Positions 34,530 to 36,398 of a DNA stretch of 40,204 nt are shown one piece after another (positions within the stretch are counted from its first letter, which is position 1; every line of letters begins with the position of its first letter). The position numbers and the translations under genes are program-made. The notes under the pieces were generated by a model, which saw only the letters and a list, made by a program, of their open reading frames with translations, had not been told where the DNA came from and made no database searches. This DNA is from Alistipes sp. (GTDB taxonomy: Bacteria > Bacteroidota > Bacteroidia > Bacteroidales > Rikenellaceae), in NCBI GenBank assembly GCA_017647025.1, contig JAGCLL010000155.1:1-40204 (forward strand), in the 5' to 3' direction.

Positions 34530-36398
34530 ATGGAGAAGTTTATTGTATCGGCTCGAAAGTATCGCCCTGCCAACTTTGAAAGTGTGGTAGGACAATCGCA
34601 TATCACCTCGACATTGAAAAATGCAATCGAGCGTGGTCAGTTGGCTCACGCCTACCTATTTTGCGGACCTCGTGGCGTGGGTAAAACCACTTGTGCGAGA
34701 ATTTTTGCAAAGGCTATAAACTGCTTGCACCCCGTAGGTGCAGAGGCGTGCGATAAGTGCGATTCGTGCCTCTCATTCAACGAAAATCGTTCGCTTAACA
34801 TCCACGAGTTGGATGCTGCGTCGAACAACTCGGTAGAGGATATTCGCAACCTGATAGAGCAGGTGCGAGTGCTTCCGCAGATTGGTCAATACTCGGTCTT
34901 TATCATCGATGAGGTACATATGCTCTCGGCAGCGGCGTTCAATGCCTTCCTCAAAACATTGGAGGAGCCACCGCAGCACGCTATCTTTATCCTTGCAACA
35001 ACCGAGAAACATAAAATTATCCCGACAATTCTTTCGCGTTGTCAGATTTACGATTTCAATCGTATTAGAGTGGAGGATGCAGTGGGATACTTGCGCTATA
35101 TCGCCCAGAGTGAGGGTGTAGAGGCTGACGATGAGTCGCTCAACCTTATCGCACAGAAGGCAGATGGTGGTATGCGTGATGCATTGTCGATGTTTGACAA
35201 GGCGGTGTCGTTCTGTGGTACAAAGTTGGAGTATCACGATGTTGCAGCGACCTTGAATGTTCTCGACTACGAAACATATTTCCGCTTTACGGAGTTGCTC
35301 TACGGAGGCGACTATGTAAATGCCTTGTTGGAGTATGATGCTGTGTTGTCGAAGGGCTTCTCCGGTCAGATATTTATGGGCGGATTAAATCAGCACTTAC
35401 GTGACCTTCTCGTAGCGAAAGGCCCGGCGGTGAAGTTGATTGAGTATACGGGCTCATTGCTCGAAAAGTATCGCCAACAAGCGGCATCGTGCGAGGCGGC
35501 TTTCCTCTTTGGAGCAATATCGCTTCTGACCGAGGCAGACTCGAAGTTGCGCACAGCCTCTTCGCAGCGATTGTTGGTCGAACTTACATTGATGAAAATT
35601 GCGGCTCTCGGTCAAAAAAAAAACCTTGACCTGACCGCACCATTTGAGGCGAAATACTCATTACCCGATTTAGATGCGCCAAAGCCACAGGTGGTGGTAG
35701 CGCCACAACCTGTCGCTCAGAAGGTGGAACAGACTACGGTAGCACCTGCGCCAACTCCTCAACCAATATCAGTGCAGGTGCCAACCGTTGAGCCAGCGGT
35801 TGCTCCAATGCCACAGCCAGTGCCGCAACCAACCGTTAAACCTGTGGTTAGTCCAACACCACAGCCAGTTGCAGAATTGACTCCACAACCGACACCTGCG
35901 GTGAAACCGACTGTTGAGTCGAAGGTGTCAGGCGTATCGCAGTTGAAGGGCTCTTCGATTTTGGGCGGTACGATAGATGGTCTTCTGAAAGAGGTGTCAA
36001 ATCCGGTAGATAAGGAGGGTAAAAGTTCTCAGATTGTTATTGATGAGGCGAGTGAGGAGAAGTTGTTGCGTGCAAAGGATGAAATCGTGAAGCAGATGTG
36101 TGCCGAGCGACCTCGCTTTGTTTCGGCTTTCGAGAATGTAGAGTTTGAGGGCAATGTCGTTAAGTTGGCTGTACCATCCGAGTCGTTGCGAGATGAACTC
36201 CTTGGAGAGCGTTTCGGCATTTTGAAACGAATGTCCGAGATGGCTGGTGTAGAGGGTTGGCTCGATATGAAAATCGAGATTAAGAATATAGATTTTAAGT
36301 TGAAGCCTATTAAACTCGAAGATAGAGTAGCGCATATTCGCAAGGTGATGCCTGAGTTTGACTATATGCAAAAGGTGTTCGATATTGATGTAGAATAG
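34530..36398 (+). CDS. dnaX: DNA polymerase III tau/gamma subunit
   Basis: A 622-residue clamp-loader ATPase. Walker A GPRGVGKT is at 46-53; zinc cysteines are 65, 74, 77 and 80 (CLHPVGAEACDKCDSC); the DEVHML Walker B and the TTEKHKI sensor follow. Clamp-loader domains I-III end at about residue 360. Residues 362-365 are coded over a run of ten A (35614-35623). Both other frames stop within five codons after it, so slippage would give a gamma-size protein of about 366 residues. Beyond lie a Pro/Gln/Val-rich linker (about 385-470) and a C-terminal tau domain (EEKLLRAKDEIVKQMCAERP, SLRDELLGERFGILKRM). Start: ATG 34530 rather than the in-frame GTG at 34521, which lies in the -7 box. tyrS follows 55 bp after the stop. 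Confidence 0.95.
   Translation: MEKFIVSARKYRPANFESVVGQSHITSTLKNAIERGQLAHAYLFCGPRGVGKTTCARIFAKAINCLHPVGAEACDKCDSCLSFNENRSLNIHELDAASNNSVEDIRNLIEQVRVLPQIGQYSVFIIDEVHMLSAAAFNAFLKTLEEPPQHAIFILATTEKHKIIPTILSRCQIYDFNRIRVEDAVGYLRYIAQSEGVEADDESLNLIAQKADGGMRDALSMFDKAVSFCGTKLEYHDVAATLNVLDYETYFRFTELLYGGDYVNALLEYDAVLSKGFSGQIFMGGLNQHLRDLLVAKGPAVKLIEYTGSLLEKYRQQAASCEAAFLFGAISLLTEADSKLRTASSQRLLVELTLMKIAALGQKKNLDLTAPFEAKYSLPDLDAPKPQVVVAPQPVAQKVEQTTVAPAPTPQPISVQVPTVEPAVAPMPQPVPQPTVKPVVSPTPQPVAELTPQPTPAVKPTVESKVSGVSQLKGSSILGGTIDGLLKEVSNPVDKEGKSSQIVIDEASEEKLLRAKDEIVKQMCAERPRFVSAFENVEFEGNVVKLAVPSESLRDELLGERFGILKRMSEMAGVEGWLDMKIEIKNIDFKLKPIKLEDRVAHIRKVMPEFDYMQKVFDIDVE
35614..35623 (+). promoter_or_regulatory. Putative slippery site (A10) in dnaX
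   Basis: Read in frame as CAA AAA AAA AAC. A -1 shift gives AAA CCT TGA and a +1 shift gives ACC TTG ACC TGA, so both end at once. A short inverted repeat GGTCAA/TTGACC brackets the run. E. coli and Thermus dnaX make gamma by slippage at similar A runs. Confidence 0.6.

What the first reader, a model, noticed from the sequence alone, without database searches (positions are those of the whole stretch)
35613..35634. Ten-A slippery run in dnaX placed at the gamma/tau boundary, with immediate stops in both other frames
Seen: A10 after codon 361, a -1 shift gives TGA after two codons (27-29 in the 356xx block) and a +1 shift gives TGA after three. Position matches the end of clamp-loader domain III. 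Known: E. coli makes gamma by -1 ribosomal frameshifting and Thermus by transcriptional slippage at an A9 run in the same gene. Inferred: this organism makes a roughly 366-residue gamma as well as tau from one gene. The homopolymer would be expected to drift if not selected.
Basis: partly seen in the sequence, partly recalled or inferred. Interest (0 to 1): 0.7.

Follow-up and report, generated by a model that had tools for sequence, protein, structure and literature searches.

The report
Poly-A slippage site in dnaX
A run of ten A's inside a DNA-replication gene of an Alistipes-like gut bacterium appears to be kept by selection, very probably so that RNA polymerase slips there and one gene yields a long and a short clamp-loader protein; the trick is known, but in this phylum it is widespread and the long protein can lie in any of the three reading frames.

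Summary
A10 at 35614-35623 in dnaX (34530-36398) lies just after the clamp-loader part, with TGA in the -1 (35627-35629) and +1 (35632-35634) frames. All 60 Rikenellaceae dnaX read keep A10-A12 there, though lysines in residues 1-362 are 32% AAA; in 53 of 53 with tau in frame 0 both off-frames stop within 21 nt, against 4.2% of control positions. Of 282 Bacteroidota loci, 157 have A>=9 at this boundary; five control windows of the same genes have it in 0-2 of 280-282. While the run stays, the tau frame moves: 0 in 111, -1 in 33, +1 in 11, unclear 2. A -1 ribosomal shift cannot serve the +1 genes, nor explain the closed third frame; RNA-polymerase slippage explains both. Best reading: Thermus-type programmed transcriptional slippage making gamma and tau; a new member of a known kind. 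No RNA or protein data. In passing: an unnamed Bacteroidales family carries AGG CAA YCR here with tau in +1 (41 of 42 loci), apparently another recoding signal.

The parts
34530..36398 (+). dnaX, full frame-0 product tau, 622 aa
34530..35615 (+). clamp-loader part shared by tau and the predicted gamma (residues 1-362)
   Evidence: aligned to E. coli gamma 1jr3_A over residues 4-359; Pfam domain III 236-360, below cut-off
35614..35623 (+). A10 run, predicted slippage site
   Evidence: A10-A12 in 60 of 60 Rikenellaceae read
35627..35629 (+). TGA in the -1 frame (met if the mRNA has A11): predicted gamma of 366 aa ending QKKKP
   Evidence: a stop within 21 nt in this frame in 53 of 53 relatives with tau in frame 0, control 17.7%
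35632..35634 (+). TGA in the +1 frame (met if the mRNA has A9): predicted gamma of 367 aa ending QKKTLT
   Evidence: 53 of 53 relatives with tau in frame 0, control 22.7%

Best explanation
The A10 run is a programmed transcriptional slippage site of the Thermus dnaX kind. RNA polymerase slips on the A stretch and makes dnaX mRNAs of mixed run length. Molecules with the templated length (or plus or minus three) are translated into tau, 622 aa. Molecules one A longer or shorter run into TGA at once and give gamma, about 366-367 aa, which keeps the AAA+ clamp-loader domains and loses the tail. Shown here: the run, its place, both stops, their conservation, and the movement of the tau frame around a kept run. 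Inferred: the slippage itself, the two proteins and their ratio.
For: Run kept as A10-A12 in 60 of 60 Rikenellaceae although lysines of residues 1-362 are 300 AAA to 643 AAG, and nine conserved lysine columns are 8-68% AAA. Both off-frames stop within 21 nt in 53 of 53 versus 4.2% of 30,798 control positions; each frame alone 53 of 53 versus 17.7% and 22.7%. Across Bacteroidota 157 of 282 loci have A>=9, specific to the place. Tau frame among the 157: 0 in 111, -1 in 33, +1 in 11, unclear 2; among 125 loci with A<9: 0 in 122, +1 in 2 (family f2, see noticed), unclear 1. Fewest changes of tau frame among run-bearing loci: 29 on a FastTree, a number that weak branches inflate. In Rikenellaceae four changes, one of them a clade of three species with tau in -1 (support 100/100). 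In Rikenellaceae no excess RNA structure downstream (mean z -0.40, control -0.43, n 59) and an SD-like 4-mer upstream in 2 of 60.
Against: No RNA or protein evidence. The site also holds A_AAA_AAA and A_AAA_AAC, on which ribosomes can shift -1. Of the genes with tau in -1, 16 of 33 end the run as in-frame AAG, the E. coli-like A_AAA_AAG. Outside the family folding is not neutral: in 58 other run-bearing loci with tau in frame 0 the mean z is -0.43 downstream and -0.79 around the run against -0.04 in controls, and one near relative (L002) folds at z -2.25 downstream. The three Rikenellaceae +1 genes (L035, L036, L037) look like kin with one extra A and could be assembly errors; the other eight +1 loci were not checked for this. 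L271, counted as -1, has a -1 stop 2 nt after its run and is not explained by it. In 8 of 154 typed loci one non-tau frame has no stop within 24 nt.
Confidence: 0.84

Rival explanations
1. Programmed -1 ribosomal frameshifting at A_AAA_AAA or A_AAA_AAC, as in E. coli dnaX, makes gamma; the mRNA keeps A10.
For: The heptamers are present and the -1 TGA follows closely; 16 of 33 loci with tau in -1 carry an in-frame AAG at the run's end; a weak excess of folding in run-bearing loci outside the family.
Against: Eleven loci have tau in +1 (at least three may be assembly errors). The +1 frame is closed as consistently as the -1 frame (53 of 53 each), which a -1 shift does not need. In the own family an SD-like 4-mer upstream in only 2 of 60 and no excess downstream structure. 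A heptamer needs seven bases, but ten or more are kept.
Confidence: 0.11
2. Neutral homopolymer in a low-complexity linker, with the stops there by chance.
For: Whole-window shuffles produce runs of A8 about as often as seen.
Against: A>=9 in 156 of 281 at the site against at most 2 of 280 in linker windows; AAA share of lysines 32% in residues 1-362 and both stops in 53 of 53.
Confidence: 0.02
3. DNA-level phase variation: the run lengthens and shortens by replication slippage to switch tau on and off in subpopulations.
For: Run length and tau frame differ between related species.
Against: dnaX is essential in bacteria studied (recalled), so an off state would be costly unless RNA slippage rescues it; run length is narrow (106 of 157 are A10).
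Confidence: 0.03

Closest known systems
Thermus thermophilus dnaX transcriptional slippage (Larsen 2000, not held; seen only through passages of PMC1088944, PMC5009743 and PMC3711429)
   Same: A run in the gene with tau in one ORF and stops close by in both other frames
   Different: A10 instead of A9; other phylum; slippage not measured here
Two-ORF dnaX genes found by GeneTack (PMC3711429, passages): 17 genes with a -1 step, nine with 10 As, three Chlorobi with 7-9 As
   Same: A10 in the same gene; the -1 relatives L029, L033, L034 and others have this layout
   Different: The window has tau in one ORF; the passages read speak only of -1, while 11 loci here are typed +1
Escherichia coli dnaX -1 programmed ribosomal frameshift (passages of PMC5009743 and PMC3711429)
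   Same: Same gene, same two kinds of product
   Different: E. coli uses A_AAA_AAG with an upstream SD and a downstream stem-loop; I found none of the three in the window

Membership tests
Thermus-type dnaX transcriptional slippage | A run of at least 9 in frame near the end of the clamp-loader part | tested here: met
   A10 at 35614-35623; limits
Thermus-type dnaX transcriptional slippage | Stop codons close by in both other frames | tested here: met
   TGA 35627 and 35632; 53 of 53 relatives with tau in frame 0
Thermus-type dnaX transcriptional slippage | mRNA population with varied run length | not testable with these tools
   no RNA reads
Thermus-type dnaX transcriptional slippage | Gamma and tau both made, about 1:1 | not testable with these tools
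   no protein data
E. coli-type dnaX -1 ribosomal frameshift | A_AAA_AAG heptamer | tested here: not met
   frame 0 is CAA AAA AAA AAC
E. coli-type dnaX -1 ribosomal frameshift | Upstream SD-like stimulator | tested here: not met
   2 of 60 Rikenellaceae have an SD-like 4-mer 5-18 nt upstream; by eye none in the window
E. coli-type dnaX -1 ribosomal frameshift | Downstream stem-loop | tested here: not met
   window downstream z -0.14; Rikenellaceae mean z -0.40 against control -0.43; relative L002 alone z -2.25
GeneTack two-ORF dnaX | Tau coded in another frame than gamma | tested here: not met
   window tau is frame 0; met in 33 (-1) and 11 (+1) of 157 run-bearing loci

The most novel reading that the evidence does not exclude
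In Bacteroidota the dnaX run is frame-agnostic: RNA slippage supplies both products whatever run length the DNA has, so single-base frameshift mutations in this essential gene are close to neutral. The tau frame has wandered between 0, -1 and +1 many times (29 fewest changes on one FastTree) while the run itself was kept. In one Bacteroidales family the run was exchanged for an unrelated +1 signal (AGG CAA YCR) with the same two products.
Probability: 0.6. Interest if true: 0.68.

Novelty: new member of a known kind. Interest (0 to 1): 0.5.

Why it matters
It indicates that making a short and a long DnaX is under selection in much of a large phylum; I found no report of it for Alistipes (searches, held library only). 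It offers a natural series in which the same output seems to be reached from three DNA frames. Split genes of this kind are easily taken for pseudogenes or sequencing errors. It would also make the question of what gamma is for testable in Bacteroidota that can be handled genetically.

Tried and rejected
Chance and neutrality were disfavoured by the window and synonymous-codon controls. A conserved RNA stimulator was looked for; none in Rikenellaceae, a weak excess of folding in other run-bearing loci. In the window the run is flanked by GGTCAA/TTGACC (35610-35615 and 35626-35631), which could fold around it (z -1.39); L002 and L112 lack it by eye, so I give it no role. Typing of the tau frame by ORF length was replaced by a tail HMM, which changed L150 and L227 to frame 0 and L271 from unclear to -1. 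Dropped rows: 11 duplicate loci, and L140 and L289 as too short. Undetermined: L032, L211, L251. G042, G047 and G053 gave only weak paralogue-like matches and were not fetched. Of the 116 genomes with a match in the phylum survey only 30 became loci (29 new, the best-scoring); 86 were not read, many of them with short open frames, so the phylum counts lean to near relatives. Another 24 genus mates (G061-G084) were seen only in the A10 count.

Full report
Observation. The A10 run is at 35614-35623, in frame as CAA AAA AAA AAC, inside an ORF that is dnaX by curated models. The -1 frame meets TGA at 35627 and the +1 frame at 35632. Residues 4-359 align to the E. coli gamma chain 1jr3_A, so the run begins three codons after that part, in codon 362. 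A run of eight or more A occurs nowhere else in the window, but shuffles expect 2.9 A8 matches against 3 seen, so the case rests on position and conservation.

Where it comes from. The closest named relatives are Alistipes (Rikenellaceae, Bacteroidales) by record titles. The window's genome is a 219-contig assembly, 87% complete.

Conservation in the family. I read dnaX from 36 genus mates (of a larger group) and other Rikenellaceae in scripts. All 60 distinct Rikenellaceae sequences carry A10 (48), A11 (11) or A12 (1). In residues 1-362 lysine is AAA in 300 of 943 codons, a count that includes residue 362 itself where the run begins one codon position earlier, and nine conserved lysine columns range from 8% to 68% AAA. 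In the 53 with tau in frame 0, the farther of the two off-frame stops lies within 21 nt in 53 of 53, median 8 nt; among 30,798 control positions in the same genes 4.2% do so. Each off-frame alone is closed in 53 of 53, controls 17.7% and 22.7%. In the two nearest species (L002, L112) residues after the run differ from the window, yet both stops stay at the same distance, 3 and 8 nt.

Across the phylum. From order-level genomes (148 searched, 142 with dnaX, plus some), the phylum survey (118 searched, 116 with dnaX, 29 new loci read, 86 not read) and 80 named loci I had 282 distinct readable loci; 11 duplicates and 2 short ones were dropped. 157 of 282 have A>=9 between 45 nt before and 160 nt after residue 362, most often A10 (106) or A11 (36). 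Same-sized windows elsewhere in the same genes have A>=9 in 0, 0, 0, 2 and 2 of 280-282, against 156 of 281 at the site. Among 142 order-level loci, one of them of the own family, 69 have the run. The 45 named loci titled Bacteroidaceae, Prevotellaceae, Barnesiellaceae or Muribaculaceae all lack it.

The tau frame moves, the run is kept. A profile of the tau tail, built from 231 frame-0 genes, placed the tail in frame 0 in 111, -1 in 33 and +1 in 11 of the 157 run-bearing loci, with 2 unclear. One of the 33, L271, is not explained by its run. Of 125 loci without the run, 122 have the tail in frame 0, 2 in +1 and 1 is unclear. The fewest changes of tau frame among run-bearing loci on a FastTree of residues 1-345 is 29, and of run presence 33; both depend on weak branches. 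In Rikenellaceae a DNA tree by IQ-TREE gives four changes: a clade of three species with tau in -1 (L029, L033, L034; 100/100) and three single +1 genes. The three +1 genes each look like kin with one extra A and may be assembly errors; the eight +1 loci elsewhere were not checked for this. The -1 clade has A10 like its kin, keeps a frame-0 stop 19-20 nt on and a +1 stop 2-3 nt on, and three species share it, so an assembly error is unlikely. Five genes of one genus in another family (L336, L342-L345) share A10 with tau in -1 and equal stop distances of 13 and 2 nt.

Mechanism. A -1 ribosomal shift can make gamma from frame-0 genes and tau from -1 genes. It cannot make tau in +1 genes, and it gives no reason to close the third frame. 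Yet both non-tau frames are closed within 21 nt in 53 of 53 Rikenellaceae with tau in frame 0, in 52 of 58 other loci with tau in frame 0 (control 13.7%), in 25 of 30 other -1 loci (control 15.6%) and in 8 of 8 other +1 loci. At the longest A run of loci without A>=9 it is 19 of 122, control 11.1%. Slippage by RNA polymerase lengthens and shortens the run and so explains its length (10 rather than 7), both stops, and the movement of frame. In Rikenellaceae the classical ribosomal helpers were not found: an SD-like 4-mer upstream in 2 of 60, and downstream folding equal to control. Against this, run-bearing frame-0 loci outside the family fold somewhat better than control (mean z -0.43 downstream, -0.79 around the run, control -0.04), L002 folds at z -2.25, and 16 of 33 -1 loci have an in-frame AAG at the run's end. 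So ribosomal shifting may contribute in some lineages.

Known background, as seen in passages only. Thermus dnaX slips on A9 with stops in both other frames and makes gamma and tau about 1:1 (PMC1088944; PMC5009743). GeneTack reported 17 two-ORF dnaX genes with a -1 step, nine with 10 As (PMC3711429; the figure with the A10 species is in a supplement that I did not see). The window gene is therefore a new member of the Thermus kind. I saw no statement of +1 dnaX genes or of Alistipes in those passages, nor in the listings of searches of the held library.

Own genome. The assembly has 5 A10 runs. One of the other four overlaps a 116-aa ORF with a TTG start and one is antisense to a 144-aa ORF; I doubt that these are genes but did not test them. 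The other two show no listed gene-like ORF over the run, one of them lying in a 220-codon open frame without a listed start.

A second signal, seen in passing. In the unnamed Bacteroidales family f2 (59 genomes searched, 55 with a match) I read 52 dnaX loci, two of them from one genome. Forty-two carry AGG CAA YCR in frame 0 after the clamp-loader part: 36 followed by CGGGAG, CAGGAG or one variant (L379), six (L414-L419) followed by TGAGG. In 41 of the 42 the tau tail is in +1; in L416 no tail was found. All ten without it have tau in frame 0, and three of these show an A9-A10 run instead (L380, L432, L433). Stops bound the shift to the nine bases AGGCAAYCR: in L359 the +1 frame opens only at GGC, and in L414-L419 the frame-0 stop follows YCR at once. 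The 15-base pattern occurs in 36 of 59 f2 genomes, 37 hits, 35 of them beside the dnaX match, and in 4 of 148 order genomes, two of them f2, the other two not examined. This looks like a programmed +1 shift. AGG is the rarest arginine codon in the N-terminal part of these genes (38 of 803), which would fit a slow-codon mechanism but proves nothing.

Noticed in passing
L058, L321, L352-L381, L414-L433 (family f2, Bacteroidales, unnamed): AGG CAA YCR motif (often AGGCAATCACGGGAG or AGGCAATCGCAGGAG) in dnaX with the tau tail in the +1 frame: 41 of 42 motif-bearing loci, while 10 of 10 loci without it have tau in frame 0. Probably a +1 recoding signal that replaces the A run; I found no mention of it in the searches made.
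   Followed up: partly
L035, L036, L037: Single Alistipes relatives with one extra A and an in-frame stop straight after the run, so tau is in +1; either real switches or homopolymer errors in assemblies.
   Followed up: partly
35610-35631: Inverted repeat GGTCAA/TTGACC around the A10 run that could fold as an RNA hairpin; not seen in L002 and L112.
   Followed up: partly
L271: dnaX with A10 and tau tail in -1, but the -1 frame stops 2 nt after the run and frame 0 stays open for 132 nt; a second shift site may exist downstream.
   Followed up: no
the 45 named loci of L113-L168 titled Bacteroidaceae, Prevotellaceae, Barnesiellaceae or Muribaculaceae: These lack the A run and have tau in frame 0; how or whether they make gamma is open.
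   Followed up: no
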